From a virus: 27,483 bases of DNA. The stretch is from positions 1 through 27,483 of IMG/VR virus record IMGVR_UViG_3300025880_002570; one strand, 5' to 3'. Shown here piece after piece: positions 4,243 to 19,614 of the stretch (positions are counted from its first letter, which is position 1; each line of letters opens with the position of its first letter). The notes beneath the pieces were generated by a model. The model was not told where the DNA came from. It saw only the letters and a list, made by a program, of their open reading frames with translations, and did no database searches. A program made the translations under genes and the position numbers.

Positions 4243-7200
4243 AACATGCTATATAGTTATTTTTATTTTTATTTTCTTCATACTTTTCTAAAGACTCGTA
4301 TTCTATATAATTAGTATTATCATTATTACTTTTAAACCAATCCCCTTTATTATTTAATATTTGGTTAATAATAGATTGTTCAGACTTATATAATGTAAGT
4401 AAATTTTTCTTAGTATCCACAATATTTTTATCTAGTTTAGCACTGGATTTTCCAAATACATATAATATGTCTTCTAAAATAATTTTATCAACATACTCTT
4501 TAATAAAATTAAACACAGCTTTATGTTGTGGGTGTCCATATTCACCTATAGGGTTATGTGTTACTATTTTTTCCCATTGTCTATTTAATAATATAGATTC
4601 AATATCGTATCTTTCAGGTGGATTATGTAAATCATCTTTATGATCAAACATTTCCCAAGACCCCACATTTAATTTTGTCATTACTTGTTCAAATTCTTTA
4701 CTTCTAATTTTATTTGATTTATTAGTAAGACAAATAACTTTATATTCCGGACCATGTTTTATTAATTCCGCGCCACCAAATATTAATTCATCATCAGGAT
4801 GAGATACTACCATTAATTTTTTTATTTGGTGATCTTGATACATTAAATCTAAAGTTTTACTATTTTTAGGAACAACTGATGGGTCGGGACCATGTACAAA
4901 ATAAGGTTCTTTGTTTGTTATATCAAACATAACATCAAATCCTTTATCTAATGTATTTTGATCTACAACAACTTTTTCTTTAGGGGAATAATAATTATTC
5001 CATGTAATAGGTAAATAATTAGTTTTATTTTCTTTCCAAAGTAAGGCATTAGTCACTCTTTCTTCTGAGAATGCATTATCGTCGGCAAATATTTGAAGGT
5101 TTTGGGTATTTAATTGTTTATTTAAGTCTAAACATCTTTGAAAAAATGATTCCGAATCTTTATTATAAAAATAAAAACCAGTTGCTATAATAACACTATT
5201 TGGGTTTCTTTTAATATTTAAAATATTAGATACTTCAGCTCCATAATGTCCTTCTAATTTTATGTTTTTATATTTTCTCCAATGAACCATATCTTCATCA
5301 AAATATCTCATAAATAAGGGGTAATCCTTTAAATTTAAAAGATATTTTAAAGAACCATCAATATTTTCGGTAGCAAAAGCATCACCATCTATCCAAGCAA
5401 AGTTTTTATATTCAGTTTTTAAAGAATCTATACTAGTTAAATACTTAGCAAAATATATAGAATAGTCTTTGTCTATCAAATCAAATTCCGTATTAATATA
5501 TCTTATGGGTTTAGGATCAAAGTTAATTCTTTTATTTATTACATTAGGTAAATTAATTTTAGAATCACAATTAAACCCATATACTATTAGTTTATATTTT
5601 GAATGTTTTAATAAACTTTTTGCCAAAACTTCTATCATAGATAGATATTTTTCATCTCCTCCTGTTACCCAAACAAATTCATAATTTTCTTTAGGTTCTA
5701 ATAAGTTTAAACATTCTAAATAAACCTGATCTACTGTAATTGATTTTTGACATATATGTTGTTTTGGGGTTCCTTCATTTTTAGGACACCAATCCCAATT
5801 ACCTGGATCAAATGTAAAATCTTTATTAACCCAACAATTATTACATACAGTATTATTTTCTACTTTAGTTAAATTATTTGTAAATTCGTAACCAAATGGA
5901 ATGAAATTATTAACCATTAAAGTTGGTTTATTTAAAGCCCAATTTGCCCATGATAAACCAGATCCTAAACCAATAAATAATTCTGCGTGGTAAAGGTAGT
6001 TAAAAGTTTTTTCCCAATTAAGTTTATTTTTATTTATTATATTAGTTCCCGAAAATCCCTCATAGGATAAATTAACTACTTTATACCCTTTTTTATGTAA
6101 TTTTTTAGCTAAATTTCTCCACCTATCATGAGGCCATTCTTTTAACCCCGAGGTTGCTCTAGGACCTATACAGATATATTTTCCTTTAATTGGTCTTTTA
6201 CCTATTTTAAAATCTACTCCATGGTTAATTTCTTTATAAGGAAGACCTAAAGCATCTGTTGCGGTTTGGATTAGAGGAATTGTGTTTACTTGGTTTTTAT
6301 TTTTTATACCTTTATCCCATTTTCCATTGGTTTTAAACCACCCTATTTTATAATGAGCGTATGAAGAAATATCTTTGTTAGGTTCTATAAATAATATATC
6401 TTTATATTCTGGGTTGTTAGCAAACCACTCATTATGGAAAGTACTAACTACAACTTTACAGTTATGTTTTCTTTGAAATTCTAAAACTTGAGGAGTCCAT
6501 GCTAATGTATCTCCTATAGATTTTGAATCTAATGATATTTTAACTATTCTATTGGTTACATCAAAAGTATGAATTATTTCCCCATTTACTTTAATAACCC
6601 AAGGGATATAGTATTCATGGTTACATTTAGTCCACATATTATTTTTAATAGTACTAGAATGTATTACTTTATTAGTATCAGAATTTATAAATTCTACAAA
6701 GTATTCTTCCTTATTAGAACCAAATACTTCTAACTTAACTCCTTGGTTAAAACTAAGTTCAATTTTGTTTTTAGGTGGGTTTTTTATAAAAGAATTGATT
6801 TCTTTATTAGCTATTTCAGCCATATTTTCCCAAGTAAACTTTTTTCTTAATTCTTTAGATTCTTCTAAAGCTATTTTTTTATGGTAATCGTAATTATCAT
6901 AAGCATCTCTCATTACTTCCTTAAGATGATTAAAATCTGGGACGTAAAATTCCCCTGATAGCTCTGATTGTGAGTATGTGCTGTATTCTCCTCTAATAGC
7001 GGGTTGTGTGCCTATTATATCTACAGGTAATCCTTTACCTTCAGCAAATTCTAGTTGTGCACTACAATTAGAATAAATAGAAGGTGTACCACAAGCCATA
7101 GCTTCTATTAAAGGCAAGTTCCACCCTTCAGATCGAGCACAAGATAAAAATACATGACCTTTTTGGAGGTATTTTATATATTCTTCTCTGGTAGGAAAAT

Positions 7201-7975
7201 GTTTTATTTTAATTCTTGGGTCTATTAAATTATAATGTTTTAACCTTTTTTCAGTTGTTTCAAATCCATCTTTAGCGAACATATTATCTATAGATATAAT
7301 TAAATCTACAGGTTCATCTTTATCAAATTCTTTTAAAAAACTTTCAATTATTTCTTTTGTTGATTTTCTATAATCCCATCTACCAAAATGGATAAATTTA
7401 AATCTTCCATCATCATATTCGGGTAAAGTAGATTTAGAATTAGGTTTAAAAATTTCCCCATCGACCGCTTCAGGAACTACTTTAATTTTGCTTTCAGGTA
7501 TTCCCTGCAATATGTTACAGTCTTTTTGCCATTGAGAGGGTACCCATATTTGATCAAATTCTTTTATTCGATTGTAAAAATTCTTAGGATATTCTGTTGT
7601 TTCCCATACAAGATAAGCAATTTTAGGTCCATCATATGTCTGGTAGAAATAATGGTGGTTTACTTCTGCTAAAACTATATTTAAATTGTGGTTAAAATTA
7701 TTAGGGTAATTCTTATAAATTTCTGTATCATTTAAAGTTTTATCATTTTTAAATGAAGTTTGTGATGATAAGAGTTTTTTATCTAAATCTAATATATAAG
7801 GTTCTTCATTAAAGGGTTCATCTTTTATACCATTCCAATATTTAGGAACAGTAAAGTTTCTAATTTTTAAAGGGTAATGTTTTGATAGCTTTCTAAAAAA
7901 ATCACGTGAATGGTTATTAAAACCCGTTGTTCCTATATAACAACTAGAAACTAAAATTTTAGGTGAATCTGACAT
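4232..7975 (-). CDS. Four-domain enzyme: GT4 + TibC-like O-heptosyltransferase + GT8-like transferase + PIG-L deacetylase
   Basis: A 1247-residue fusion. Residues 1-400 are a GT4-type glycosyltransferase: VWETTEYP, VPEAVDGEIFKP, FIHFGRWDYRKS, and SEGWNLPLIEAMACGTP with the EX7E pair E283/E291. Residues about 401-760 resemble autotransporter O-heptosyltransferases (TibC/Aah, a GT9 subgroup): KISLDSKSIGDTLAWTPQVLEF (479-500), CIGPRATSGLKEWPHDRW, and four cysteines C711, C714, C730 and C742 laid out as in the family's iron finger. Residues about 761-1045 look GT8-like, with WIDGDA carrying a DxD at 863-865. Residues 1050-1247 form a PIG-L/LmbE deacetylase-like domain with HPDDE at 1059-1063 and GHPQH at 1147-1151. 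Such an enzyme could attach sugars to a protein, extend them and de-N-acetylate one. It abuts the GT9-like gene upstream with no spacer and overlaps the next gene by 11 bp. Domain calls are firm to moderate; substrates are inferred. Confidence 0.85.
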   Translation of the reverse strand: MSDSPKILVSSCYIGTTGFNNHSRDFFRKLSKHYPLKIRNFTVPKYWNGIKDEPFNEEPYILDLDKKLLSSQTSFKNDKTLNDTEIYKNYPNNFNHNLNIVLAEVNHHYFYQTYDGPKIAYLVWETTEYPKNFYNRIKEFDQIWVPSQWQKDCNILQGIPESKIKVVPEAVDGEIFKPNSKSTLPEYDDGRFKFIHFGRWDYRKSTKEIIESFLKEFDKDEPVDLIISIDNMFAKDGFETTEKRLKHYNLIDPRIKIKHFPTREEYIKYLQKGHVFLSCARSEGWNLPLIEAMACGTPSIYSNCSAQLEFAEGKGLPVDIIGTQPAIRGEYSTYSQSELSGEFYVPDFNHLKEVMRDAYDNYDYHKKIALEESKELRKKFTWENMAEIANKEINSFIKNPPKNKIELSFNQGVKLEVFGSNKEEYFVEFINSDTNKVIHSSTIKNNMWTKCNHEYYIPWVIKVNGEIIHTFDVTNRIVKISLDSKSIGDTLAWTPQVLEFQRKHNCKVVVSTFHNEWFANNPEYKDILFIEPNKDISSYAHYKIGWFKTNGKWDKGIKNKNQVNTIPLIQTATDALGLPYKEINHGVDFKIGKRPIKGKYICIGPRATSGLKEWPHDRWRNLAKKLHKKGYKVVNLSYEGFSGTNIINKNKLNWEKTFNYLYHAELFIGLGSGLSWANWALNKPTLMVNNFIPFGYEFTNNLTKVENNTVCNNCWVNKDFTFDPGNWDWCPKNEGTPKQHICQKSITVDQVYLECLNLLEPKENYEFVWVTGGDEKYLSMIEVLAKSLLKHSKYKLIVYGFNCDSKINLPNVINKRINFDPKPIRYINTEFDLIDKDYSIYFAKYLTSIDSLKTEYKNFAWIDGDAFATENIDGSLKYLLNLKDYPLFMRYFDEDMVHWRKYKNIKLEGHYGAEVSNILNIKRNPNSVIIATGFYFYNKDSESFFQRCLDLNKQLNTQNLQIFADDNAFSEERVTNALLWKENKTNYLPITWNNYYSPKEKVVVDQNTLDKGFDVMFDITNKEPYFVHGPDPSVVPKNSKTLDLMYQDHQIKKLMVVSHPDDELIFGGAELIKHGPEYKVICLTNKSNKIRSKEFEQVMTKLNVGSWEMFDHKDDLHNPPERYDIESILLNRQWEKIVTHNPIGEYGHPQHKAVFNFIKEYVDKIILEDILYVFGKSSAKLDKNIVDTKKNLLTLYKSEQSIINQILNNKGDWFKSNNDNTNYIEYESLEKYEENKNKNNYIACYEK

Positions 7976-8854
7976 TTATTGTTTGTTTAATGATGCAGTT
8001 ATTTTGTTTATATCAAATATCTCATTTAAGTCATTATAGGGAAGAGTTTTTATTTCCTCAACTAAACTAAAAGGAGTATAAGATACATTATGCAAAGGGA
8101 TGTCTTTTGTATAAGGGTTTGCTTTAATATTATTATGGAAGTTATAACCAAATATTTCTGGTTTAGTATCTACCCAACATACTGTAGATTTTAGATTTAA
8201 TGCCCTTGCCATATGTTGACTAAAACTATCTATTAATAATCTTTTACTAGATTTTTGAAGGAGGATTGCTATGCTTCGGTATCCATCTAAAGCTTGTAAA
8301 CTGTCGGGGTATGTAATTTGATCTTCTCTTTTAATATGAATTATAGTATAATCCTGTTTGTAATAATCAATTAATTCTTTTACTACAATTGGGGGTATAT
8401 CTCTAGTCCATGAATATTGTTGAGATACACCAGGAGGTCCTCCATTTGGTTGAATAGCCATAATAGGTTTATCTGTAGAGTAGTATGGAGAAAAATAATC
8501 TATTTCAGGTTGTGATAAGTAAAGTTGTGGTTGTTCATTATTATATCTTAACCCAAAAAGTTCACACCAAGTTTTTAATAATGAAACAGGTTTATTAGTA
8601 ATAAAATCAGATGTTTTATAAGGTTCAGACGCAAATATTTTACATTTTTGGTCTTTAATATACTTTAGATATAACCCATTTGCTTGGTTGATATCATAAG
8701 TTTCATGTATATGAGGATTGTTTAAAAAGACGTCAGTATAGCCGGTTACTACTATTAGTTTTGCGTTTTTATAACGTGTTTTAATGGCAATTACTACAGC
8801 TGTTGCCATGATAGACTTACCAAGTCCACCTTCAATTTGAAAGATTATATTCAT
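7976..8854 (-). CDS. GT9-like (heptosyltransferase-type) glycosyltransferase
   Basis: The 292-residue protein begins MNIIFQIEGGLGKSIMATAVV, which matches the first strand and glycine loop of GT9 enzymes (usually GGLGD). It then has AKLIVVTGYTDVFLNNPHI, the typical 'where is the partner strand' segment. The C-terminal half has AIQPNGG (about residue 154) and SSKRLLIDSFSQHMARALNLKSTVCWV, equivalent to the GT9 segment that recognises the ADP-sugar and ends the Rossmann domain. GT9 enzymes transfer heptose or related sugars from ADP-activated donors. The canonical Asp of GGLGD is replaced by Lys, so activity or donor may differ. The gene is directly joined to the four-domain enzyme (7975/7976), suggesting joint action. 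A weak terminator-like hairpin precedes it, so it may need its own promoter, which I do not see. Confidence 0.65.
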   Translation of the reverse strand: MNIIFQIEGGLGKSIMATAVVIAIKTRYKNAKLIVVTGYTDVFLNNPHIHETYDINQANGLYLKYIKDQKCKIFASEPYKTSDFITNKPVSLLKTWCELFGLRYNNEQPQLYLSQPEIDYFSPYYSTDKPIMAIQPNGGPPGVSQQYSWTRDIPPIVVKELIDYYKQDYTIIHIKREDQITYPDSLQALDGYRSIAILLQKSSKRLLIDSFSQHMARALNLKSTVCWVDTKPEIFGYNFHNNIKANPYTKDIPLHNVSYTPFSLVEEIKTLPYNDLNEIFDINKITASLNKQ

Positions 8855-8930: not shown

Positions 8931-9242
8931 TTAATTCTCCCAAGGAAAACCAGTACCATTAATAGCAGGAGGAGTGGATATCATATTAGCTATTGAAGCT
9001 GAATTTTCTTGTTCTATAAGAGCTGTATCAACTAGAGATGTAATCCAACTTAAAACATTTTCTTGAGTTAGGTTTTCAAATTCAATAAAACCTGGGGTAT
9101 CTATTGATCCTGTTACTTCTATCTCCCCATTATATCTTTCTCCAACTTCTTCATGAAGAGAATCAACTATGAATGAAATTCTATTTATTATTCCAGTACT
9201 TATTTCTCTTTCAAGTTCTGTAATTCTATAATTATGTACCAT
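8931..9242 (-). CDS. Small tail-associated protein (DUF7936-like), function unknown
   Basis: The 103-residue protein begins VHNYRITELERE and contains IEVTGSIDTPGFIEFENLTQENVLSWI and a final GFPWEN. This pattern (VHNYxITxLER near the start, FIxFxxLTxExVxxW in the middle, a PW motif at the end) matches a small uncharacterised family I recall as DUF7936, common beside tail and fibre genes of T7-like and T4-like phages. It has no signal peptide or membrane helix. It has its own promoter-like box 16 bp upstream and interrupts the glycosyltransferase cassette. That placement suggests it is a virion or tail-assembly protein rather than a sugar enzyme. Family membership is from memory; its function is unknown. 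Confidence 0.65.
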   Translation of the reverse strand: MVHNYRITELEREISTGIINRISFIVDSLHEEVGERYNGEIEVTGSIDTPGFIEFENLTQENVLSWITSLVDTALIEQENSASIANMISTPPAINGTGFPWEN

Positions 9243-9258
9243 GTTTATTGTTATTTTG

Positions 9259-9268
9259 TTATAAATAT
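9259..9268 (-). promoter_or_regulatory. Recurrent promoter-like box upstream of the 103-aa gene
   Basis: Exact copy (minus strand ATATTTATAA, followed by CAAAA), 16 bp before the ATG at 9242. It is the only copy inside the glycosyltransferase cassette. Confidence 0.5.
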
Positions 9269-9279
9269 ATAATTTTTAT

Positions 9280-9846
9280 TTAATGTATTGGTTTTATCCA
9301 ACTATCATCAAGGTATGTTTTAAATGGTTCTTGAAATGCTTCATTTACCGCACGTACTACACCAGGCCATTCTTTTTGGTAATCGTGTCCACCTATTAAT
9401 TGTTTAGTTTTGGGTGTGTATAATTTTATATCTTTTTTTACCGATTCGTAATCATGGGCACCATCTATATAAATAAAATCAAAGTAACCATCTGGAAAGA
9501 TGTTTGATATATTGTAACTATATTCTTTGTGGTGAGTGATATTACTAAAATGGCGAGTATTAAGTTTAAATTCTTCTTTTACATTATCCCATGTTTCGTT
9601 AAATACCAAATTAGATTCTTCTTTTTCTTCGTGAGGGTCTATACAATGAATTTCACTAAATATTCCTAACGAGGCAAACATAAAAGTAGATTCACCTTTA
9701 TATGACCCAATTTCTAACATTTTTAAATTAGATTTATTGTTTAATGTAGAATATATATCATACATTAATTGGTTTAAACCTAAATAAAACCTATTACCCC
9801 ACATATTATTCCATTCAGGATTAGGGTTAAATCTTAATGAACTCAT
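9280..9846 (-). CDS. SAM-dependent methyltransferase (class I, Methyltransf_24-like)
   Basis: The 188-residue protein has the class I Rossmann motifs in order. LKMLEIGSYKGE (residues 41-52) is the glycine loop that binds SAM, EIHCIDP with D70 the ribose-binding acidic position, and FIYIDGAHDYESV (124-136) with GGHDY (152-156) the signature of the small Methyltransf_24 group. That group is frequent in glycan clusters, where it methylates sugars or related small molecules. Two bases separate it from the upstream dioxygenase gene, so the two are co-transcribed. The C-terminal domain of the GT25 protein (10557-11897) is a diverged copy of this protein. O-methylation of a fibre or host glycan is a reasonable inference; the substrate is not shown. 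Confidence 0.85.
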   Translation of the reverse strand: MSSLRFNPNPEWNNMWGNRFYLGLNQLMYDIYSTLNNKSNLKMLEIGSYKGESTFMFASLGIFSEIHCIDPHEEKEESNLVFNETWDNVKEEFKLNTRHFSNITHHKEYSYNISNIFPDGYFDFIYIDGAHDYESVKKDIKLYTPKTKQLIGGHDYQKEWPGVVRAVNEAFQEPFKTYLDDSWIKPIH

Positions 9847-9847
9847 A

Positions 9848-10567
9848 TTATCCTACTAAGTTTCTATCACACCAATTGTTTTCTGATGATGCTACGTTAT
9901 TATTATTCGATTCTATGTATTCCCAGGCTAAACTAAACCGAGTATTATTTGAAGTATTTGGATAACACCCATGTATCATATTAATATTAAAAAACACAGC
10001 ATAAGGTGCATCTAATTCTAAGTCTAATATCCAATTAGGATTTAATTTTGTTTCATCTATCCATTGTATTCCTTCTATATGGGATATAACATCATGTGGT
10101 ATTATTCCTATTTTATGAGATCCAGGTATAATTCTTAAACATCCATTTTCTTTATTTGTATTTTGAAAATATAGAGCACAACTAATTATATTATCAGGAT
10201 CACCATTAAAATAAAAGTTATCTTGGTGTAAAAATGTTGATACTCCTACTTTGGGTTTCATTGGAAAAAATTTAGATATATAAACATCTAATGTTTCTTC
10301 TGTATTTATTAATTGTTTGGCTGTATTTACAAGGATTTTATTCTTTGCTATTTTTAAAAACTCAGGTTCATACTCGCATGCCCCTTCTATTTTATTTAGG
10401 TTAGTAGGACTATTTAATCTATAGTTACCTTCATGTTCCGTTAAATTAAGAGAATATTTATAGTGTTTTTGGGATATTTTTAATAGATCCTTTAATTCAT
10501 CTTCGGATAAAAAGTCTTTTATTATTACATATCCTAACTCATTAAATTTATTTATATTAAAGTTCAT
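9848..10567 (-). CDS. Phytanoyl-CoA dioxygenase (PhyH)-like 2-oxoglutarate/Fe(II) oxygenase
   Basis: The 239-residue protein starts FNELGYVIIKDFLSEDEL, the standard PhyH opening (residues 8-25). The iron ligands are visible as H114 and D116 in LHQDNFYF and H199 in MIHGCYPNTS. R210 in NTRFSLAWEY is the likely 2-oxoglutarate-binding arginine. GCLRIIPGSHKIG (142-154) is the typical strand before the second histidine. It should therefore be catalytically competent. PhyH-family enzymes hydroxylate small molecules, lipids or sugar-linked substrates. Collagen prolyl and lysyl hydroxylases share the wider 2OG-Fe superfamily but are a different family. It overlaps the GT25 gene by 11 bp and is 2 bp from the methyltransferase. 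Hydroxylation of a glycan or of the fibre is inferred only. Confidence 0.88.
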   Translation of the reverse strand: MNFNINKFNELGYVIIKDFLSEDELKDLLKISQKHYKYSLNLTEHEGNYRLNSPTNLNKIEGACEYEPEFLKIAKNKILVNTAKQLINTEETLDVYISKFFPMKPKVGVSTFLHQDNFYFNGDPDNIISCALYFQNTNKENGCLRIIPGSHKIGIIPHDVISHIEGIQWIDETKLNPNWILDLELDAPYAVFFNINMIHGCYPNTSNNTRFSLAWEYIESNNNNVASSENNWCDRNLVG

Positions 10568-11897
10568 AATTTTCTTTTTTAATTACCCAACTATTATCAA
10601 ATATTATAGCTTTAGGGGGAGCGTCTTGTATATTGTTACCACCTATAAAACCCTTTTTAGAAATTTTAGGAAAATACCTTTTAATTAAAGGTTTAATATT
10701 TTCTTGTTTTCTATTATTAATATAAAGAAATAATAAATCATCAAAAGATTCAGAAATTAAAGTGGGGTCTTGATTTATATGGTTGATATTTTTATGGAAA
10801 TAATTGTTATTATTAAATCCTATTTTTATATCTTCCCAAGTTAAATTATGTTTAATATTAAATTCATCTTCTCCCTTAAGGGGATCAATAGCATATATAT
10901 TAGAAAATAAACCACTAGAACCAAAATAAAAAGTATTTTCTCCTAAATGGCTGTTTATTTCTACCATTTTTCCTCTTTGATTCAAATTTTTAGATAAAAA
11001 ATCTATTAATCTAATTATACTAAAAAAGTTAAGGTTTAGTTTATCCTTGCTAGAAAAATTTTGAATCCCAAATTTAGGTTCTGATAAGACAATTTCTGTG
11101 TATTCATCTACTTCTTTTGGATGTTTTATATATTTAGCTATGTTTTTATTTAAGATATTACCATTTTCATCAAAAGAAATACCAACCCTTCCCCCTCCTT
11201 TTCTAAATTCATTGAAAAAGGTGTCTGAATCAGATACACTTGAATGGGAAAGATCGGATATTTGGAGAAAAATACTATTTTTTAATGTAAAAGAATTATG
11301 AGTATTATAAAATTGTTCTAGGTACACATCCGCTGCGTTTTTAATAGGTAAGACCTTATTAGTTAAAACTTTGAGCATATGATTAGTTGCAATATAAGAA
11401 TGGGCTCCTTCCCAATTTGAACTAGGGGTTGGGAGAGTTAAATATTTTCCAACATTTAAACCCTCAGTATTTTGATTTTTTTTACCTAAATGAATTAAAT
11501 CGTAATTAGAATTTTCAATTTCATTAATAATTTTAGAGTATTCATCAGTAAAAGTATTGTCGGTATTTAGTATTGGTTTATGTAAAATAATATCATCTTC
11601 TAAAAATAAAGCATTTTTTACACCATCAGATAAAGCCTGATCCCATGCCTTTTTATGGGATAGAGCACAAGCAAATACTCCCATAGTTACCATACCATTA
11701 GGATCAAAAAAAGAGGAATTTAATATTTTATCTTTTAACAATTGTTCTTGGTTAAGGTCTTTACCATCTATTGCTTCTATAAAAGTAAAATCAATATTAG
11801 GAAAATTATCTATTAAAGTTTTTTTTCTGTCTAGTCTGCGTTTTAGGTTTATAACATAGATTTTATCAAAACCAAGTGTAGAGTATTTTGTATTCAT
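10557..11897 (-). CDS. GT25-family glycosyltransferase fused to a degenerate methyltransferase domain
   Basis: The 446-residue protein has an N-terminal GT25 domain: IYVINLKRRLDR (13-24), EAIDGKDL (41-48), CALSHKKAWDQAL (77-89) and ALFLEDDIILHKP (96-108), with the acidic E100-D101-D102 metal/nucleotide site. GT25 contains bacterial LPS galactosyltransferases and animal collagen galactosyltransferases. Residues 309-446 align by eye to the whole core of the neighbouring methyltransferase (9280-9846): KMVEINSHLGENTF against KMLEIGSYKGESTF, IYAIDP against IHCIDP, and DNSWVIKK against DDSWIKP. The IDGAHDY motif has become INNRKQEN, and the glycine loop EIGS has become EINS, so SAM binding is probably lost. 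It is coupled to genes on both sides (1 bp from the GT4-like gene, 11-bp overlap with PhyH). Confidence 0.88.
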   Translation of the reverse strand: MNTKYSTLGFDKIYVINLKRRLDRKKTLIDNFPNIDFTFIEAIDGKDLNQEQLLKDKILNSSFFDPNGMVTMGVFACALSHKKAWDQALSDGVKNALFLEDDIILHKPILNTDNTFTDEYSKIINEIENSNYDLIHLGKKNQNTEGLNVGKYLTLPTPSSNWEGAHSYIATNHMLKVLTNKVLPIKNAADVYLEQFYNTHNSFTLKNSIFLQISDLSHSSVSDSDTFFNEFRKGGGRVGISFDENGNILNKNIAKYIKHPKEVDEYTEIVLSEPKFGIQNFSSKDKLNLNFFSIIRLIDFLSKNLNQRGKMVEINSHLGENTFYFGSSGLFSNIYAIDPLKGEDEFNIKHNLTWEDIKIGFNNNNYFHKNINHINQDPTLISESFDDLLFLYINNRKQENIKPLIKRYFPKISKKGFIGGNNIQDAPPKAIIFDNSWVIKKENYEL

Positions 11898-11898
11898 A

Positions 11899-12933
11899 TT
11901 ATAAGGAATCTAAGAAAAAATGGTATTTTTCTTTTAAAAAATTATCATTTAAAAACTTTATATTATTAACTTCTTGGTACAATATATCCTTTAAATCACT
12001 ATCAGAAGTATTTTTAATTTGTATAATAGTTTTTGTTATTTCATTGTAATTACACTTAGATATAAAGGGGTAATTTGGTAAAAATTCGGATATTGGCAAA
12101 TTTGGGGATATTATAGGTACCATACCATTTACCATACTATATAATGTTTGTAAATCAAAAGAATTATAAAGTCCTATATTAGCATATATATGGTTAGTTT
12201 TATAAAAATTACTGAAGTTTCTTAATTGACCTTTAAAACTGATATTAGAATGTAATGCCGTTGCATTATTTATTAAAGGTTGAGTTGTAAATGGACTTCT
12301 TCCATGTTTCCCATATATTTTCAAATTATAGTCAGATAAAGAGGCTAATGAAGGAATTAAATGCCCAAACCCATTATTAAATGAAGGTATACCATTAAAT
12401 CCTATATTATTATTAGGTTTAAAATAGGAAGGATTAAAGGTAATAGATTTTTCTTTTCCTAAAGAAGGGGGAATTATTGTTACTTTTTTATTACTTTGGA
12501 TTTCGTAATAGTTTGTAAAAAGATTAAAGTCTAAATTACTATAAAAAATTAAGGCATCAGCATAATCGTTGTATAATGTATTTTGGGAATTTTTTGATAA
12601 AGAGTTATATGATGAATCAGATTTAAAATTATAATGTTTTAAAATATCAACATCTATATTTTTATGTATTTCAGGAATAGTATCAATTACAAAAATTTTA
12701 GGGATAGAAATATTATCTAAAAAGGGAGTAAGGGATAGTAAAGAAGTTACTTTAAAATCTAATAATACTAAAACATGAGTATAGTTTTTGTTTATACTAT
12801 ATGATAAATTTACATCAGATATTGAATATATATCTTTTTGTTGAAGGTTTAATGTAGAAATTAAATTATCTAAAATAAATAATTCATTCACATACCCCCT
12901 ATCAATATAGTTTGTAATTATACATATCTTCAT
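11899..12933 (-). CDS. GT4-like glycosyltransferase, directly downstream of the large fibre
   Basis: I start this at the ATG that gives MKICIITNYIDRGYVNELF. An upstream TTG at 12948 is also in frame, but five extra residues before such a typical strand-start look unlikely. The protein has two Rossmann-like halves: the first ends near KVTIIPPSLG, and the second contains NLKIYGKHGRSPF, ISFKGQLRNFSNFY and YANIGLYNSFDLQTLYSMVNGMVPIIS. The last block occupies the place of the GT4 EX7E region, but the acidic pair is missing (N-S-F-D-L-Q instead of E...E), so the enzyme may use a variant mechanism or be inactive. The start lies 22 bp after the fibre stop, so it is the first enzyme of the fibre-linked cassette. 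Its partner and acceptor are inferred from context. Confidence 0.6.
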   Translation of the reverse strand: MKICIITNYIDRGYVNELFILDNLISTLNLQQKDIYSISDVNLSYSINKNYTHVLVLLDFKVTSLLSLTPFLDNISIPKIFVIDTIPEIHKNIDVDILKHYNFKSDSSYNSLSKNSQNTLYNDYADALIFYSNLDFNLFTNYYEIQSNKKVTIIPPSLGKEKSITFNPSYFKPNNNIGFNGIPSFNNGFGHLIPSLASLSDYNLKIYGKHGRSPFTTQPLINNATALHSNISFKGQLRNFSNFYKTNHIYANIGLYNSFDLQTLYSMVNGMVPIISPNLPISEFLPNYPFISKCNYNEITKTIIQIKNTSDSDLKDILYQEVNNIKFLNDNFLKEKYHFFLDSL

Positions 12934-12955
12934 AGGGGGAATATACAAAAATATT

Positions 12956-13270
12956 TTAGATATCCCTACTTATTTTTAATTCTAATTCTTCTACTTTAAC
13001 TGTTAAGTCTTTAATTGCTTCAATTAATAAAGGTACAATTTTTTCATAGTTAACGGCTTTATATCCACTATCTCTAGTTGTAACAGCTTCTGGTAGTATT
13101 GCTTCTATTTCTTGTGCAATTACTCCTACATCTTTACCTGTATTACCGTGTATAGTTTTTGTTTCTTCTTTAGTTAATTCTTTCCAATCAAATGTATTAC
13201 CACTTACTCCAATTACTTTACATAAAGAATTTTCTATAGGTTTAATATTACATTTTAATCTTTTATCAGA
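12956..13270 (-). other. S74 self-cleaving chaperone domain of the large fibre
   Basis: Encodes residues about 1533-1636, beginning at the SDKRLK motif. The family cleaves at this Ser after the fibre has trimerised, releasing the chaperone. Conserved GVIAQE and YxKIVPLLIEAIK segments are present, so cleavage is expected, though not demonstrated. Confidence 0.85.
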
Positions 13271-16200
13271 AGTAGCATAAGCTACAATATCATTTGTTGC
13301 ATCAATTCTACCTGTAGTTGTATTACAAGCATTTCCAGTACCCCCTACATTTAAATGATTTCTAACATGAGAACATTGAGTATAAAAGGTACAATTTTGA
13401 TTTGAAGATAAGTTATAACCAGCAAGAAAGGAATAATCATGACCATTAATGTAATTGCTATACCCACCTAATATAGCACTACAATTAGCACCATTACATA
13501 TACAATTTAGTCTACCTCCTAAGATAGCAGAGGTGTTAGAATTATAAATTTTATTCGTAGTACCTCCAACAATAGAACTCTTAGGTGAACTTACACAAAT
13601 TACATTGAAATCTCCTGCACCTATAAAACTACAATTTGTACCTGTTTGACAGATGCAGTTGTTACATCCTGCAACTATAGCACTATTACCAACACAAGTA
13701 TTAATTTTATTGGCACCTCCTGCTCCTATAAAATTTCCTGAACAAGCAGTATTATTATTGACTATACAATTTACTGATCCTCCTGCTATTACACTAGTTT
13801 TACCACTGGATATATAATTTCTACAACCACCACCAATAAAACTTTCAGTTGAACTTGAACCTGTGTTTTTTAATCCACCAGCTATAGAAAATCTAGTAGC
13901 TGAATTTGTTTGGCTACTTCCTATAGTTATTTGCATAGCCCTAATTTGAGCTAATGCATCTCCATCACCCTCTGTAAAGACATGACATTCACCAGGAGTA
14001 GCATAAACGTTTTGGGCACCATAACCAGCTAAATTATTTAAATCATAAGATATGTTTCCAAAACTATCTCCATCATAATCAAGTATGAATTTCTGGCCTT
14101 CATTAATGGCTATATTTTGGGAATCGTTATGTAATATGTTACCATCAAATGTTAAACTACCTTCAGCATTTAATTGGCCTTGTGTACCTGTTGAAGTTGT
14201 AACTCTGTTGTTACCTAAATTTGTTATAGTAGCTGTTCCGCTTGTTCCTGAAGAACCTGAAGAACCTGAGTTACCTGATGTTCCTGAAGAACCTGAAGAA
14301 CCTGAGTTACCACTTGATCCTGAACTACCTGAAGTACCAGAGTTACCGCTTGTTCCTGATGAACCACTAGAACCTGAGTTACCACTTGATCCTGAACTAC
14401 CTGAAGTACCAGAGTTACCGCTTGTTCCTGATGAACCACTAGAACCACTTGTACCACTTGATCCTGAACTACCTGAAGTACCAGAGTTACCGCTTGTTCC
14501 TGATGAACCACTAGAACCACTTGTACCACTTGATCCTGATGAACCACTTGAACCTGAGTTACCACTTGATCCTGAACTACCTGAAGTACCAGAGTTACCG
14601 CTTGTTCCTGATGAACCACTAGAACCTGAGGTTCCTGATGAACCACTAGAACCTGATGTTCCTGGGGTACCTGTTCCACCACTTGTTCCTGAAGAACCTG
14701 AACTACCCGATGAACCTGAACTACCGGATGAACCCGAAGTTCCTGAATTTCCTGATGAACCAGATGTACCACTTGATCCAGATGAACCTGAAGTTCCAGA
14801 TGAACCACTTGATCCTGAGTTTCCTGAAGAACCACTTGTTCCTGAAGATCCTGATGATCCACTTGTTCCTGAAGAACCTGATGAACCAGATGAACCACTT
14901 GAGCCTGATGTACCACTTGAGCCTGAACTACCACTTGAGCCTGAACTACCACTTGAGCCTGAACTACCTGAGGTTCCACTTGAAGCGGCATTTGTTTCAT
15001 ATCCTACATTACCACTTGAATCTACAACTAATACATCATTACTAGTTGTTATATTAGGTAAATTAGGGGCATTTAAAGTACCATCAATCATTGTTAAACC
15101 TGAACCACTTACAGATAAGATTGGAACACCTGATATATCAGATGCTGCAAATACTATCCCTGTCAAATCATCTGTTACTGAAAATAATTGACCTTGAGAT
15201 CCTTGTACATCTAAAATTGTGCTACCTGATCCTGATACTGTAAGTTTAGTACCATCAAATGTAAAATTAGCTTCAGCATTTAATGCACCTTGAGTTCCTG
15301 TTGATGTAGTTACTCTATTGTTACCTAAATTTGTTATTGTTGCTGTACCACTTGTTCCTGATGAACCAGATGTTCCTGATGAACCACTTGAACCTGAGGA
15401 ACCACTTGAACCTGAAGTTCCAGATGAACCACTTGAACCTGAAGAGCCTGAAGAGCCTGAAGAACCAGATGAACCACTTGAACCAGATGTTCCTGAGGAA
15501 CCTGAAGAGCCTGAATTTCCTGATGAACCTGATGTACCTGATGATCCACTTGAACCTGAAGTTCCAGATGAACCACTTGATCCTGAGTTTCCTGAAGAAC
15601 CACTTGTTCCTGAAGAACCACTTGAACCTGAAGAACCTGAAGTACCACTATTACCTGAACTACCTGATGAACCCGAAGTTCCACTTGAACCAGATGTTCC
15701 TGATGTACCATCATCTCCTCTATCACCTACTAAGGCGAAAGAAACAATTACATCTTCATTATTAGTAAATGGGGATGCAGCTGATGATGCTTGTTCACTT
15801 ATGTTTATTGTCCAATATACACCTAAGTCTGTTAGGTTTGATATTGAAAACAATATAAAATTTTCTGGAGCGAATTTATCCGCTATTCTCATATGACCCT
15901 TTACTGCTGATGTAGAGGCATCAATACTCTCTAAAAATGACTGTATATTATCACCATCTTCTGTAGTCTGACTAATAATGGATAATGTAGATGCGTTTTG
16001 TGTAGTGTTATTTAATCTTATATCTCCATTACCTGGATCAGCAGTACCTGTTGCTGTGTCAAATGTATAATTAAAAGTAGCACCACCAAAATTACCATCT
16101 TGTCCTGATGTACCACTTGACCCAGATGAACCTGAAGTTCCCGATGAACCTGAAGTACCACTTGAGCCTGAAGAACCACTTGAGCCTGAACTACCTGAAG

Positions 16201-17866
16201 TACCAGATGACCCTGATGAGCCACTTGTTCCTGATGAACCTGATGAGCCTGAAGTTCCTGATGTACCACTTGATCCTGTATTTCCTGAAGTTCCAGATGA
16301 ACCACTTGATCCTGAGTTTCCTGAAGAACCTGAAGAACCTGAAGTACCAGAGTTACCGCTTGTTCCTGATGAACCCGATGAGCCGGAGTTACCACTTGTT
16401 CCAGAGGAACCTGATGAACCATCTGAACCTGAAGTTCCTGAAGTACCAGATGACCCTGAAGAACCACTTGTGCCTGATGAGCCTGAAGAACCACTTGTTC
16501 CAGGATTACCTTGGACACCACTTGTTCCTGATGAACCACTTGAACCACTTGTTCCTGATGAACCTGAAGAACCGTTTGAACCTGAAGTTCCTGAAGTTCC
16601 TGAAGAACCGGTATTACCTGAAGTACCTGATGTACCGGATGAACCAGATGAACCTGAGTTACCACTTGTTCCTGAAGAACCAGATGAACCATCTGAACCT
16701 GAAGTTCCTGAAGTTCCGGATGAACCTGAACTACCTGATGTTCCTGAAGTTCCTGAAGAACCTGTATTACCTGAAGTTCCTGAAGAACCACTTGATCCTG
16801 ATGAACCTGATGTACCACTTGTTCCTGGGTTACCTTGGACACCACTTGTTCCTGATGAACCACTAGAACCACTTGTTCCTGAAGAACCTGAACTACCTGA
16901 TGTTCCTGAAGTTCCCGAAGAACCAGTATTACCTGAAGTTCCTGAAGATCCACTTGAGCCTGATGTACCTGATGAGCCCGAACTTCCTGAAGTACCTGAT
17001 GAGCCTGATGAACCTGAAGTGCCTGAAGAGCCTGAGCTACCGCTTGTACCTGATGAACCTGAGCTACCTTTATCACCTATAAGTTCAATAGCCATAAAGG
17101 TAGCATCGCTATTACCTACATTATTCCAACCACTTTTATCAATATGAGTGATATCTAATGTTCTCCAACCACCATTATCTGTTTGGGCAGTAACATATGC
17201 TGAATCATAATATATTTGATTTGATTCTAATCTAAATGTTATAACAGATTTATTATTATTTGTAGAATCTGTTAGAGTACCTAATATTGGGTCTATACCT
17301 AATCCATCTAAATCAGTCTCACTAATATAAACTTCAGTAGCTGCAGCCGGGTCAGCGGCGTTAAATCTAAATTTACCTGAGCCTGGGTCTGCTGATGTTG
17401 TAGATGTAGAGTATTCTATACGGAATCCATAAGTGGAAACACCTGAAGTACCAGATGTACCTGAACTACCTGATGAACCACTTGTTCCTGAAGAACCAGA
17501 TGAACCATCTGAACCTGAAGTTCCTGATGTACCCGAAGAACCTGAAGAACCTGATGTGCCTGAAGAACCAGATGAACCATCTGAACCTGAAGTACCTGAT
17601 GTACCGGATGAACCAGATGAACCACTTGTTCCTGAAGAACCACTAGAACCACTTGAACCTGATGAGCCACTTGAACCTGAACTACCATTTGAACCAGAAG
17701 TACCAGAAGTACCACTAGATGCAGCATTTTCTCTGGTACCTACAGTACCATCACTATTTATTACAAGCGTTGTGTTTTCAGATCCTTGAGTTGAAAGACC
17801 TGTTAATTTAATTTCATTTAACTCAGCATTACTACCACTAAGTATTACTTTTTTCCAATTTGGCAT
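12956..17866 (-). CDS. Giant collagen-like (Gly-X-Y) fibre with Cys-rich solenoid and S74 chaperone domain
   Basis: A 1636-residue virion fibre. Residues 1-48 are an anchor-like head (NWKKVILSGSNAEL) shared with the 409-aa protein at 18385-19614. Four Gly-X-Y blocks (about 51-143, 265-589, 715-840 and 958-1210) consist mostly of GSS and GTS triplets with occasional GNS and GSD; only three triplets contain proline. They are separated by globular modules at 144-264, 590-714 and 841-957; a further module spans 1211-1341. Residues about 1342-1490 repeat a SxIxGGxxNxI pattern, like a beta-solenoid, and are rich in Cys. The C-terminus is a peptidase S74 intramolecular chaperone with SDKRLKCNI starting at S1533, GVIAQEIEAILPEAV and YEKIVPLLIEAIKDL. 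S74 domains trimerise fibres and usually cleave themselves off at the Ser-Asp site. The gene has an unusually long leader and is followed by sugar enzymes. Confidence 0.9.
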   Translation of the reverse strand: MPNWKKVILSGSNAELNEIKLTGLSTQGSENTTLVINSDGTVGTRENAASSGTSGTSGSNGSSGSSGSSGSSGSSGSSGTSGSSGSSGTSGTSGSDGSSGSSGTSGSSGSSGTSGTSGSDGSSGSSGTSGSSGSSGTSGTSGVSTYGFRIEYSTSTTSADPGSGKFRFNAADPAAATEVYISETDLDGLGIDPILGTLTDSTNNNKSVITFRLESNQIYYDSAYVTAQTDNGGWRTLDITHIDKSGWNNVGNSDATFMAIELIGDKGSSGSSGTSGSSGSSGTSGSSGSSGTSGSSGSSGTSGSSGSSGTSGNTGSSGTSGTSGSSGSSGTSGSSGSSGTSGVQGNPGTSGTSGSSGSSGSSGTSGNTGSSGTSGTSGSSGSSGTSGTSGSDGSSGSSGTSGNSGSSGSSGTSGTSGNTGSSGTSGTSGSNGSSGSSGTSGSSGSSGTSGVQGNPGTSGSSGSSGTSGSSGSSGTSGTSGSDGSSGSSGTSGNSGSSGSSGTSGNSGTSGSSGSSGNSGSSGSSGTSGNTGSSGTSGTSGSSGSSGTSGSSGSSGTSGSSGSSGSSGSSGTSGSSGTSGSSGSSGTSGQDGNFGGATFNYTFDTATGTADPGNGDIRLNNTTQNASTLSIISQTTEDGDNIQSFLESIDASTSAVKGHMRIADKFAPENFILFSISNLTDLGVYWTINISEQASSAASPFTNNEDVIVSFALVGDRGDDGTSGTSGSSGTSGSSGSSGNSGTSGSSGSSGSSGTSGSSGNSGSSGSSGTSGSSGSSGTSGSSGNSGSSGSSGTSGSSGSSGSSGSSGSSGSSGSSGTSGSSGSSGSSGSSGTSGSSGTSGTATITNLGNNRVTTSTGTQGALNAEANFTFDGTKLTVSGSGSTILDVQGSQGQLFSVTDDLTGIVFAASDISGVPILSVSGSGLTMIDGTLNAPNLPNITTSNDVLVVDSSGNVGYETNAASSGTSGSSGSSGSSGSSGSSGSSGTSGSSGSSGSSGSSGTSGSSGSSGTSGSSGNSGSSGSSGTSGSSGSSGTSGSSGNSGTSGSSGSSGSSGSSGSSGTSGGTGTPGTSGSSGSSGTSGSSGSSGTSGNSGTSGSSGSSGNSGSSGSSGSSGTSGSSGSSGTSGNSGTSGSSGSSGTSGSSGSSGTSGNSGTSGSSGSSGNSGSSGSSGTSGNSGTSGSSGSSGNSGSSGSSGTSGNSGSSGSSGTSGTATITNLGNNRVTTSTGTQGQLNAEGSLTFDGNILHNDSQNIAINEGQKFILDYDGDSFGNISYDLNNLAGYGAQNVYATPGECHVFTEGDGDALAQIRAMQITIGSSQTNSATRFSIAGGLKNTGSSSTESFIGGGCRNYISSGKTSVIAGGSVNCIVNNNTACSGNFIGAGGANKINTCVGNSAIVAGCNNCICQTGTNCSFIGAGDFNVICVSSPKSSIVGGTTNKIYNSNTSAILGGRLNCICNGANCSAILGGYSNYINGHDYSFLAGYNLSSNQNCTFYTQCSHVRNHLNVGGTGNACNTTTGRIDATNDIVAYATSDKRLKCNIKPIENSLCKVIGVSGNTFDWKELTKEETKTIHGNTGKDVGVIAQEIEAILPEAVTTRDSGYKAVNYEKIVPLLIEAIKDLTVKVEELELKISRDI
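13397..13845 (-). repeat. Cys-rich solenoid-like repeat region in the large fibre
   Basis: Encodes about 150 residues built from repeats of SxIxGGxxNxI (for example SFIGGGCRNYI, SAILGGRLNCI, SAILGGYSNYI). About a dozen cysteines recur at similar positions in the repeat, including two NCIC pairs. It probably forms a trimeric or single-chain beta-solenoid before the S74 domain, possibly the receptor-binding tip. Confidence 0.7.
14235..14990 (-). repeat. Gly-X-Y block 4 of the large fibre, with 72-bp near-identical tandem repeats
   Basis: Encodes about 250 residues of collagen-like triplets (GSS, GTS, GNS). Within 14309-14632 a 72-bp unit recurs almost without change at 14309, 14381, 14453 and 14561. 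The last interval is 108 bp (one and a half units), showing an underlying 36-bp period. One proline triplet, GTP, occurs. Confidence 0.85.
15345..15710 (-). repeat. Gly-X-Y block 3 of the large fibre
   Basis: About 125 residues of GSS/GTS/GNS triplets with no proline, between the second and third globular modules. The block starts with a GDRGDDG transition. Confidence 0.8.
16095..17070 (-). repeat. Gly-X-Y block 2 of the large fibre (longest)
   Basis: About 325 residues of uninterrupted Gly-X-Y triplets, dominated by GSS and GTS with GNT, GNS and GSD variants. GVQGNPGTS occurs twice and supplies the only prolines. It starts with a GDKGSS transition and ends with GQDGNFGG. Confidence 0.85.
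17437..17716 (-). repeat. Gly-X-Y block 1 of the large fibre
   Basis: About 93 residues of GSS/GTS/GSD triplets immediately after the N-terminal anchor head, without proline. Confidence 0.8.
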
Positions 17867-17918: not shown

Positions 17919-17929
17919 CGTAATATAGT

Positions 17930-17939
17930 TATAAATATG
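17930..17939 (-). promoter_or_regulatory. Recurrent promoter-like box upstream of the large fibre
   Basis: Exact copy (minus strand ATATTTATAA), 63 bp before the ATG, farther than the usual 12-29 bp. It is followed by CTAT rather than the usual A-rich stretch. Confidence 0.5.
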
Positions 17940-18384: not shown

Positions 18385-19614
18385 TTAAGAATAGATATAA
18401 ATATCTTGTGATGAAGATACAAATATATTTCCTTTAGCCGTATATCTTGATACTACAGTTGATGTAGTATCATTAGCATCGGCACCTATTACAACAGTTG
18501 ACATAAAAGCATCTGGAGTAAATCCTGAACCACTTGCATGGAATGAACTTGTTACACCCCATCTTAATGATGATAATCCATCATAAGCAAAGGCATCACC
18601 ATAATCCTGATCTGTTTGTTGTATTACAATACCACCATCTCCAGCAGAAGTAGAACCAGAAGCTAATAATATAAATCTATCTTTTATTAGTAAATTTTCT
18701 GAATTTTGGAATGATGCTGTACCTTGTACTGTTAAATCATGGCTAATTACAACATCACCGGTTACTGTTAATAAACCACCTACTGTAGAACCACCATTAC
18801 TTATAAAAGTTAAATTAGATTCTGCTTCAGCACTTGATCCATCAATATCAGTTAATACTCTATTATTACCAGAATTATTAACATTAATTACACCACTTGT
18901 TCCTGAAGAGCCACTTGAACCATCTGAACCTGAAGAACCTGATGTACCACTTGAACCTGAAGAGCCTGATGTACCTGAGGAACCGGACGAACCATCTGAA
19001 CCTGAAGTTCCTGATGTTCCACTTGAACCAGAAGAACCAGAAGAACCATCTGAACCTGAAGTACCTGAAGAACCACTTGAACCATCTGAACCTGAAGTTC
19101 CTGATGTTCCGCTTGATCCTGAACTTCCAACAGCACCATCTGCACCACTTGTTCCTGAAGTACCTGAAGAACCACTTGAGCCTGATTCACCAGAAGTTCC
19201 TGATGAGCCACTTGATCCACCAGCACCGTCAGCACCACTTGTACCTGATGTACCTGAAGAACCTGAAGAACCTCCTGCACCATCTGCACCACTTGTTCCT
19301 GATGTACCTGAAGAACCTGAAGAACCGTCAGAACCACTTGTTCCTGAAGAACCTGAAGAACCTCCTGCACCATCTGCACCACTTGTTCCACTTGAGCCAC
19401 TTGAGCCACTAGTTCCACTTGAACCTGAGGAACCATCTGAACCTGAAGTACCACTTGAGCCTGAACTTGATGCATTTTCTCGTGTCCCAACTACCCCTGC
19501 AGGGCTGATTACCAATACTGTCTCTTCACTTCCTTGTACCGATAAATCTGATAAGGACAACTGCGCTAGTTCTGCGTTCGAGCCACTAACAATTACTTTT
19601 TTCCAATCTGCCAT
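18385..19614 (-). CDS. Second collagen-like fibre protein, paralogue of the large fibre's head
   Basis: A 409-residue protein whose first 48 residues (MADWKKVIVSGSNAELAQLSL) match the large fibre's head (MPNWKKVILSGSNAELNEIKL) almost position by position. Residues about 51-244 are Gly-X-Y triplets (GSS, GTS, GSD, and GAD-GAG variants), again without proline. Residues about 245-409 are a beta-rich C-terminal domain: NNSGNNRVLTDIDGSSAEAESNLTF, then SHDLTVQGTASFQNSENLLIKDRFILLASGSTSAGDGGIVI. Parts of it recall modules common in phage tail fibres. It lacks the S74 chaperone, so it may depend on another factor for trimer formation. The shared head suggests both fibres bind the same attachment point. 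A variant promoter-like box lies 20 bp upstream. Confidence 0.82.
   Translation of the reverse strand: MADWKKVIVSGSNAELAQLSLSDLSVQGSEETVLVISPAGVVGTRENASSSGSSGTSGSDGSSGSSGTSGSSGSSGTSGADGAGGSSGSSGTSGSDGSSGSSGTSGTSGADGAGGSSGSSGTSGTSGADGAGGSSGSSGTSGESGSSGSSGTSGTSGADGAVGSSGSSGTSGTSGSDGSSGSSGTSGSDGSSGSSGSSGTSGTSGSDGSSGSSGTSGSSGSSGTSGSSGSDGSSGSSGTSGVINVNNSGNNRVLTDIDGSSAEAESNLTFISNGGSTVGGLLTVTGDVVISHDLTVQGTASFQNSENLLIKDRFILLASGSTSAGDGGIVIQQTDQDYGDAFAYDGLSSLRWGVTSSFHASGSGFTPDAFMSTVVIGADANDTTSTVVSRYTAKGNIFVSSSQDIYIYS
18395..18404 (-). promoter_or_regulatory. Variant promoter-like box upstream of the 76-aa gene
   Basis: Minus-strand ATATTTATAT, one mismatch from the box, 20 bp before the TTG start. It lies inside the last codons of the second fibre gene. 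Confidence 0.4.
18893..19466 (-). repeat. Gly-X-Y block of the second fibre
   Basis: About 190 residues of collagen-like triplets. Compared with the large fibre it has more acidic and alanine triplets (GSD, GAD, GAG, GES), and no proline. The DNA is internally repetitive. Confidence 0.8.

What the first reader, a model, noticed from the sequence alone, without database searches (positions are those of the whole stretch)
9280..17866. A collagen-like fibre is followed by a GT25, 2OG-dioxygenase and methyltransferase cassette: a candidate virion-fibre glycosylation system
The gene order is fibre, GT4-like enzyme, GT25-methyltransferase fusion, PhyH-type dioxygenase, methyltransferase, all coupled or 1-22 bp apart. 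The fibre carries roughly 790 residues of Gly-X-Y triplets almost entirely made of Ser and Thr, which offer hundreds of O-glycosylation sites. GT25 is the family of animal collagen galactosyltransferases, and 2OG-Fe dioxygenases include the collagen hydroxylases (a different family from PhyH). The parallel with eukaryotic collagen modification is striking but may be analogy only: the repeats have essentially no Lys and three Pro, so direct O-linkage to Ser/Thr is more plausible than hydroxylysine glycosylation. Alternatives: remodelling of host LPS, or modification of another virion protein.
Basis: partly seen in the sequence, partly recalled or inferred. Interest (0 to 1): 0.85.

Follow-up and report, generated by a model that had tools for sequence, protein, structure and literature searches.

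The report
Phage tail-fibre operon with sugar-modifying enzymes
In an uncultured virus related to T4-like phages of marine flavobacteria, the gene for a long repetitive tail fibre shares a transcription unit with enzymes that build and trim sugars, so the phage probably sugar-coats its own fibre, but relatives keep the enzymes without the collagen-like repeats, so the "collagen modification" parallel is not supported.

Summary
fib1 (12956-17866, - strand) has 268 Gly-X-Y triplets, 90% Ser/Thr in X/Y. GT4, GT25-methyltransferase-like, PhyH and Methyltransf_24 genes follow, 22 bp apart to 11 bp overlapping.

A promoter motif (ATATKTATAA, 11 sites, all on the coding strand) precedes fib1, other structural genes and the next gene after the set, but none of the four enzyme genes. 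They are probably expressed with the fibre as late genes.

Comparative data do not support the collagen-specific link. Two GT4-GT25 lineages (L020, L026) have fibres without Gly-X-Y, and none of 48 contigs with Ser/Thr Gly-X-Y fibres carries this GT25. What all 11 GT4-GT25 fibres in view share is a Cys-rich beta-roll head. PhyH-MT24 is an optional two-gene insert; a relative has a sulfotransferase and APS kinase near the pair instead. COLGALT1 is the best PDB match of the GT25, but also of a prophage-type GT25. The fused methyltransferase domain has lost its motifs.

Best reading: a variable glycan-decoration cassette tied to a modular virion fibre, inside the fibre/glycosyltransferase island known from T4-like marine phages. 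The acceptor is unproven; host-envelope remodelling is the main rival.

The parts
12956..17866 (-). fib1: modular tail-fibre protein, MPNWKK N-terminus, 4 Gly-X-Y blocks (268 triplets), Cys-rich beta-roll head, Peptidase_S74 C-terminal chaperone
13322..13966 (-). Cys-rich IGGGxxN beta-roll (YadA-head-like) domain of fib1; present in every GT4-GT25-linked fibre in view
11899..12933 (-). GT4-type GT-B glycosyltransferase (ORF listing gives a TTG start at 12948; the conserved ATG is at 12933)
   Evidence: Pfam weak; model pLDDT 91, Foldseek BshA/MshA/HepE/SdgB; adjacent to GT25 in relatives
10557..11897 (-). GT25 glycosyltransferase with intact LEDD motif, fused to a degenerate methyltransferase-fold domain
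9848..10567 (-). PhyH-family 2OG-Fe(II) oxygenase, conserved H114-D116-H199 and R210; optional in relatives
9280..9846 (-). Methyltransf_24 methyltransferase (IDGAHxYE and GGHDY motifs intact); optional, usually paired with PhyH
17929..17938 (-). Late-promoter-like motif ATATTTATAA, 72 nt upstream of fib1; presumed promoter of fib1-GT4-GT25-PhyH-MT24
9259..9268 (-). Same motif upstream of the DUF7936 gene; presumed start of the next unit (conserved at this place in most relatives)
8931..9242 (-). DUF7936 small protein, recurrent next to these cassettes
7976..8854 (-). 292-aa protein, proposed GT9-like from appearance; no confident family match; next to GT4-GT25 in most relatives
   Evidence: weak PHROG match only; GT9 label is inference
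4232..7975 (-). 1247-aa multidomain enzyme: GT4, GT9, an unassigned region with a WIDGD (DxD-like) motif, PIG-L-type deacetylase; split in two ORFs in some relatives
   Evidence: third region by inspection only
3271..4242 (-). 323-aa protein, possibly a GT-A-type glycosyltransferase; no family hit
   Evidence: assignment is inference
18385..19614 (-). fib2: second collagen-like fibre (64 triplets)

Best explanation
A late-expressed glycan-decoration cassette tied to a modular trimeric tail fibre. Shown by sequence: fib1, GT4, GT25, PhyH and MT24 are tightly packed behind one promoter-like motif that otherwise precedes structural genes. Inferred: while virions are built, GT4 and GT25 use host nucleotide sugars to put a short glycan on the fibre, most likely O-linked. 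Optional tailoring enzymes then change it: 2OG oxidation (PhyH) and O-methylation (MT24) here, sulfation in a relative. The second unit (292-aa protein, GT4-GT9-PIG-L protein, 323-aa protein) would add or modify further sugars. The acceptor could be Ser/Thr in the shaft where one exists, but the enzymes do not depend on Gly-X-Y. The glycan would mask or tune the receptor-binding fibre and vary quickly.
For: Tight packing and one promoter-like motif: 11 exact ATAT[TG]TATAA sites in the window, all on the coding strand, 10 lying 22-133 nt before a gene start, none before GT4/GT25/PhyH/MT24; pattern kept in relatives; in the cultured relative immuto 6 of 8 genomic sites lie in the structural half and none in its separate glycosyltransferase operon. 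GT4 and GT25 are adjacent wherever both are in view, with GT25 catalytic motif and PhyH catalytic residues conserved. The gene directly upstream is a fibre in most lineages, with a beta-roll head in all 11 fibres in view. Tailoring genes swap: PhyH-MT24 absent in L008 and L011-L019, a divergent PhyH with MT24 in the same slot in L022, sulfotransferase and APS kinase flanking the pair in L020, a GT and a sulfotransferase-family gene near PhyH in L045.
Against: No direct evidence of any glycan on the fibre. Beta-roll-head fibres and Gly-X-Y fibres mostly occur without these enzymes. L030 carries GT4-GT25 with no fibre in 10 kb upstream. Glycosyltransferases of the second unit occur in relatives (L054, L104) without a fibre recognised in the region. 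The motif is a sequence inference; no transcription data. No nucleotide-sugar synthesis gene is recognised in the window, and the genome is incomplete.
Confidence: 0.5

Rival explanations
1. Host envelope remodelling: the enzymes modify host LPS or capsule to exclude other phages or to stop progeny re-adsorbing to debris.
For: This is how pelagimyophage authors read glycosyltransferases in the same kind of island (PMC7029224). Pfam calls GT25 'LPS biosynthesis protein'. GT9 and PIG-L domains are typical of envelope glycans. Enzymes of this kind can act late.
Against: They sit in the fibre's own transcription unit with a structural-type promoter motif. No gtrA/gtrB-like membrane partner among the cassette proteins and no clear transmembrane segment (the highest 19-residue hydropathy is 1.73, in GT4), although cytosolic LPS enzymes need none.
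Confidence: 0.27
2. The cassette glycosylates another virion protein (for example the sheath with its variable insert, the tube or the capsid), not the fibre.
For: Mycobacteriophages glycosylate capsid and tail-tube proteins (cited in PMC12619734). Glycosyltransferases next to sheath and tube occur in relatives without a recognised fibre there (L054, L104). The window sheath is 784 aa against 582 aa in L020.
Against: GT4-GT25 follows the fibre, not sheath or tube, and L020 and L026 have the short sheath but keep GT4-GT25.
Confidence: 0.15
3. Collagen-type modification proper (a narrower form of the best explanation): the Gly-X-Y shaft is the specific substrate and its Ser/Thr glycans stabilise a Pro-poor triple helix (BclA-like).
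For: 484 Ser/Thr in 268 triplets. 9 of 11 fibres linked to GT4-GT25 have Gly-X-Y. BclA, a collagen-like spore protein, is glycosylated and the sugars are thought to aid helix hydration (PMC8968730).
Against: L020 and L026 keep the enzymes with Gly-X-Y-free fibres; L022 has a non-collagen Thr/Ser repeat upstream. 0 of 48 Ser/Thr Gly-X-Y contigs carry this GT25. COLGALT1 similarity is not specific. Only one Lys in the repeats.
Confidence: 0.15
4. DNA hypermodification: the glycosyltransferases decorate phage DNA bases.
For: Phage glycosyltransferases can do this (Pyle et al. 2024, cited in PMC12619734); 2OG oxygenases hydroxylate bases in some systems.
Against: PhyH rather than TET/JBP family; no base-modification genes recognised nearby; location among structural genes.
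Confidence: 0.03

Closest known systems
Host recognition cluster (fibre plus glycosyltransferase island) of T4-like pelagimyophages and cyanomyophages (PMC7029224)
   Same: T4-like marine phage; hypervariable stretch with fibres and several glycosyltransferases; collagen repeats and YadA domains are mentioned among structural proteins of the same phages
   Different: Here GT4-GT25 (+PhyH-MT24) share the fibre's own transcription unit; that paper reports GT8 as the most represented family and infers LPS modification
Mycobacteriophage virion glycosylation (Freeman et al. 2023, cited in PMC12619734)
   Same: Phage-encoded glycosyltransferases proposed to act on virion proteins
   Different: There the glycan is demonstrated, on capsid and tail tube; here the fibre is only the inferred target
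COLGALT1 / LH3 collagen lysine glycosylation, and mimivirus L230, R699 and R655
   Same: GT25 domain with LEDD motif; COLGALT1 and R655 are the best PDB matches
   Different: One GT domain only, no lysyl hydroxylase, no Lys acceptors, and a prophage-type GT25 gives the same best hit
BclA exosporium collagen-like glycoprotein (Bacillus)
   Same: Gly-X-Y protein of a microbe that is glycosylated
   Different: BclA is spore-borne and Thr/Pro-rich (own knowledge), with a known glycan; no homologous enzymes sought or found here
Flavobacterium phage vB_FspM_immuto (closest cultured relative by sheath)
   Same: Structural gene order, promoter motif, fibres near sheath
   Different: No Gly-X-Y fibre or GT4-GT25 in the structural region; a larger separate glycan operon at 49-60 kb

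Membership tests
T4-like marine host recognition cluster (fibres + glycosyltransferases) | Variable island with fibres and glycosyltransferases among T4-like structural genes | tested here: met
   description in PMC7029224
Glycosyltransferase family 25 | GT25 domain and conserved acidic LEDD motif | tested here: met
   Pfam 2.3e-22; motif kept in all 13 aligned relatives
Collagen galactosyltransferase (COLGALT) | Closest to COLGALT1 in a way that other GT25 enzymes are not | tested here: not met
   Prophage-type GT25 of L145 also hits COLGALT1 best (1.7e-12), as the window does (6.3e-12)
Collagen galactosyltransferase (COLGALT) | Hydroxylysine acceptors in Gly-X-Lys | tested here: not met
   One Lys in 268 triplets; oxygenase is PhyH, not lysyl hydroxylase
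Collagen prolyl/lysyl hydroxylase | P4H or LH family 2OG oxygenase | tested here: not met
   PhyH 1.4e-22; best PDB matches human PHYH, PHYHD1, EvdO2
Active PhyH-family 2OG oxygenase | HxD...H iron triad and 2OG-binding Arg | tested here: met
   H114, D116, H199, R210 invariant in 7 sequences
Methyltransferase (C-terminal domain of the GT25 protein) | Motifs shared with intact Methyltransf_24 (IDGxHxY, GGHDY) | tested here: not met
   Motifs degenerate, YINNR in the window; fold retained at moderate confidence
Phage virion glycosylation system | Glycan on a virion protein made by phage-encoded enzymes | not testable with these tools
   needs virion glycoproteomics
O-antigen conversion (gtrABC) | GtrA flippase and GtrB membrane glycosyltransferase partners | tested here: not met
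   No such family and no clear transmembrane segment in the cassette proteins of the window; rest of genome not available

The most novel reading that the evidence does not exclude
A phage-encoded O-glycosylation pathway acting on its own Pro-poor, Ser/Thr-saturated collagen-like fibre, with GT4 starting and GT25 extending a glycan that PhyH oxidises and MT24 methylates, doing chemically for a phage triple helix what hydroxyproline does in animals.
Probability: 0.15. Interest if true: 0.82.

Novelty: new variant of a known kind. Interest (0 to 1): 0.5.

Why it matters
If the fibre is the acceptor, this would be a phage tail fibre (the host-range protein) modified by its own swappable glycan enzymes, giving a second way to vary receptor recognition or hide from defences. 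It would also show that glycosyltransferases in marine T4-like islands, usually read as LPS-modifying, can act on the virion. The transcription unit and the occurrence with and without Gly-X-Y make the question testable on one cultured relative.

Tried and rejected
(1) COLGALT1 as best PDB and fold hit of the GT25 taken as evidence for a collagen substrate: rejected after the L145 control. (2) Gly-X-Y as the obligate partner of GT4-GT25: rejected. (3) Beta-roll head as a predictor of GT25: the head is in all 11 linked fibres, but two Gly-X-Y contigs with the head (L196, L251) lack GT25, and of 50 head contigs only the window's near-identical record G001 has the full fusion (one further record, L345's contig, carries the window's own head type but no GT25 on its 25 kb). 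So the association runs one way only, and Cys-rich heads are common in phage fibres. (4) Phylogenetic clustering of the Gly-X-Y trait on the GT25 tree: not clustered beyond shuffles; at least 3 changes. (5) T4 late promoter TATAAATA on the coding strand: not the motif in use; the real one is ATATKTATAA. (6) A bacterial source of the GT25-MT fusion: one hit only, a contig with the same phage genes inside a MAG (L297). (7) GT25 survey in the phylum of that MAG: only 3 genomes held, uninformative. (8) Head alignment scan: too little conserved. (9) Several malformed calls.
Full report
What is there. The window is a 27,483-base IMG/VR virus record from a T4-like myophage: major capsid protein, PhoH, head-tail adaptor, tail sheath and tube. 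By sheath protein the closest cultured phage is Flavobacterium phage vB_FspM_immuto, 54% identity. fib1 has 268 Gly-X-Y triplets in four blocks; 90% of X and Y residues are Ser or Thr, with one Lys and three Pro. Pfam gives GT25, PhyH and Methyltransf_24 well above cut-off. The GT4-like gene is at most 0.08 in Pfam but models with pLDDT 91 as a GT-B enzyme; the best matches are BshA, MshA and HepE-type GT4 enzymes, with the Ser-repeat protein glycosyltransferases SdgB and GtfA also in the list. That list is generic and does not identify the acceptor. The enzymes do not stop at 9280: a DUF7936 protein, a 292-aa protein, a 1247-aa protein with GT4, GT9 and PIG-L domains and a 323-aa protein follow to 3271.

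One transcription unit with the fibre. Inspection of upstream sequences showed a motif, ATAT[TG]TATAA, usually continued as YAAAA. The window has 11 exact copies, all on the coding strand, and 10 lie 22-133 nt before a gene start. Eight sites score 21.5 or more; the best score in 20 Markov-shuffled sequences was 19.3 (the matrix was trained on eight of the window's sites, so the strand and position bias is the more independent evidence). The motif precedes fib1, fib2, DUF7936, p84, sheath, tube, adaptor, p78, p180 and phoH, but none of GT4, GT25, PhyH and MT24 (one copy lies inside the GT4 reading frame). In relatives L009-L013 it again sits before DUF7936, and before p84 and sheath where these are in view, with none between fibre and GT4 (one internal to GT4 in L008 and L010). 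In the immuto genome 8 exact copies exist, all on the coding strand, 6 in the structural half, and none in that phage's separate glycosyltransferase and nucleotide-sugar operon at 49-60 kb. So the four enzymes are probably made together with the fibre. This rests on sequence only.

What the enzymes look like. In 13 aligned GT25 proteins the LEDD motif is kept. The C-terminal domain keeps a methyltransferase fold at moderate confidence (overall pLDDT 70) and is a paralogue of the neighbouring MT24, but the IDGxHxY and GGHDY motifs have degenerated (YINNR and GGNN in the window). It is probably a non-catalytic domain (inference). PhyH keeps H114-D116-H199 and R210 and should be active. Its solved relatives include human PHYH and EvdO2, the latter an oxygenase of sugar-containing natural products (own knowledge).

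Is it about collagen? The GT25 profile's best PDB match is human COLGALT1 (1.7e-18), then mimivirus R655 (4.5e-12), with a bacterial GT25 at 0.017; the model agrees. A control weakens this: the prophage-type GT25 in L145 also finds COLGALT1 first (1.7e-12). R655 itself is only a putative collagen enzyme (PMC9546862). The comparative test was done in both directions. With the enzymes as anchor, 10 of 19 GT25 records contain Ser/Thr Gly-X-Y DNA and 9 do not, including 104- and 116-kb records (several records are near-identical). Fibres upstream of GT4-GT25 in L020 and L026 are in view and have no Gly-X-Y; in L022 a non-collagen repeat with 64% Ser/Thr lies upstream. On the GT25 tree the Gly-X-Y trait needs at least three changes and is not clustered beyond shuffles. 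The enzymes are therefore not tied to Gly-X-Y.

What does go with GT4-GT25. All 11 lineages whose fibre is in view (window, L008, L009, L012, L013, L015, L016/L019, L020, L026, L131, L297) have a beta-roll head of IGGGxxN repeats with 5-8% Cys in that fibre; 9 of the 11 also have Gly-X-Y. None of the 80 sheath-anchored loci has the head, but many of those are short. The reverse does not hold: Cys-rich heads are frequent in other phages (104 of 120 loci of a pattern scan that asks for a Cys in the repeat), and among 50 head contigs only the window's near-identical record has the fusion. So the partner is a kind of modular fibre rather than one repeat.

Modularity of the tailoring genes. PhyH-MT24 is absent in L008, L011 and L012-L019, which otherwise keep fibre, GT4 and GT25. 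The pair occurs alone on large contigs (L036-L040, L048). L022 carries a divergent PhyH (3.9e-13) with MT24 in the same slot. L020 has a sulfotransferase before the pair and an APS kinase and a cytidylyltransferase-like gene after it. L045 has PhyH next to a Gly_transf_sug glycosyltransferase with a Sulfotransfer_2 gene nearby. The simplest reading is that these enzymes finish a glycan by oxidation, methylation or sulfation; none needs a collagen acceptor.

Mechanism and verdict. The best-supported account is a fibre-linked glycan cassette acting during virion assembly (0.5). Host-envelope remodelling, which is how the pelagimyophage literature reads glycosyltransferases in such islands (PMC7029224), is the main rival (0.27). 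Another virion protein stands at 0.15; Gly-X-Y-specific modification, a narrower form of the best explanation, also at 0.15. No acceptor, sugar or activity is shown. The kind of island is already described; sharing of the fibre's transcription unit, the GT25 fused to a degenerate methyltransferase, and the interchangeable tailoring genes make it a new variant. The decisive experiment is virion glycoproteomics of a cultured relative.

Noticed in passing
L136:3807-5240 (+), IMGVR_UViG_3300013108_000408: 478-aa phage protein fusing a COLGALT1-like GT25 domain (2.8e-14) to a lysyl-hydroxylase domain like mimivirus L230 (1.6e-25) and human LH3 (4e-23); the contig encodes a baseplate wedge protein, so it is a tailed phage. 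No other full-length copy found. Possibly more interesting than the given finding.
   Followed up: partly
window 555, 2964, 3263, 9268, 12927, 17938, 19644, 22777, 23114, 23678, 24553 (-): Putative late-promoter motif ATAT[TG]TATAAYAAAA of immuto-like T4-type phages, also in the cultured immuto genome; not the T4 late consensus.
   Followed up: yes
window 13322-13966 (-) and L308-L427: Cys-rich (roughly 3-12%) IGGGxxN beta-roll heads are common in phage fibres; the role of so many Cys is unexplained.
   Followed up: partly
L020:5439-6263 and L020:9448-10677: Sulfotransferase, APS kinase, HAD-like and cytidylyltransferase-like genes flanking GT4-GT25: a possible phage-encoded glycan sulfation set.
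   Followed up: partly
L022:3-1226: Open frame of Thr/Ser-rich repeats (TTTTFSTSQS type, 64% Ser+Thr) upstream of GT4-GT25 in place of a collagen-like fibre.
   Followed up: partly
window 4232-7975: 1247-aa four-region glycan enzyme (GT4, GT9, DxD-like region, PIG-L) that is split into two ORFs in L011, L013, L051 and L104.
   Followed up: partly
window 571-2925: Tail sheath carries a long variable insert (784 aa against 582 aa in L020-type relatives).
   Followed up: no
NC_055915.1 49172-59988: Cultured relative immuto has its own operon of glycosyltransferases, WecE-type aminotransferases, epimerase, methyltransferase and a 'pilin glycosylation protein'.
   Followed up: no
L036-L040, L048: PhyH-MT24 pair (85-86% PhyH identity to the window) on virus contigs of up to 373 kb without GT25 nearby, suggesting recent transfer.
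   Followed up: partly
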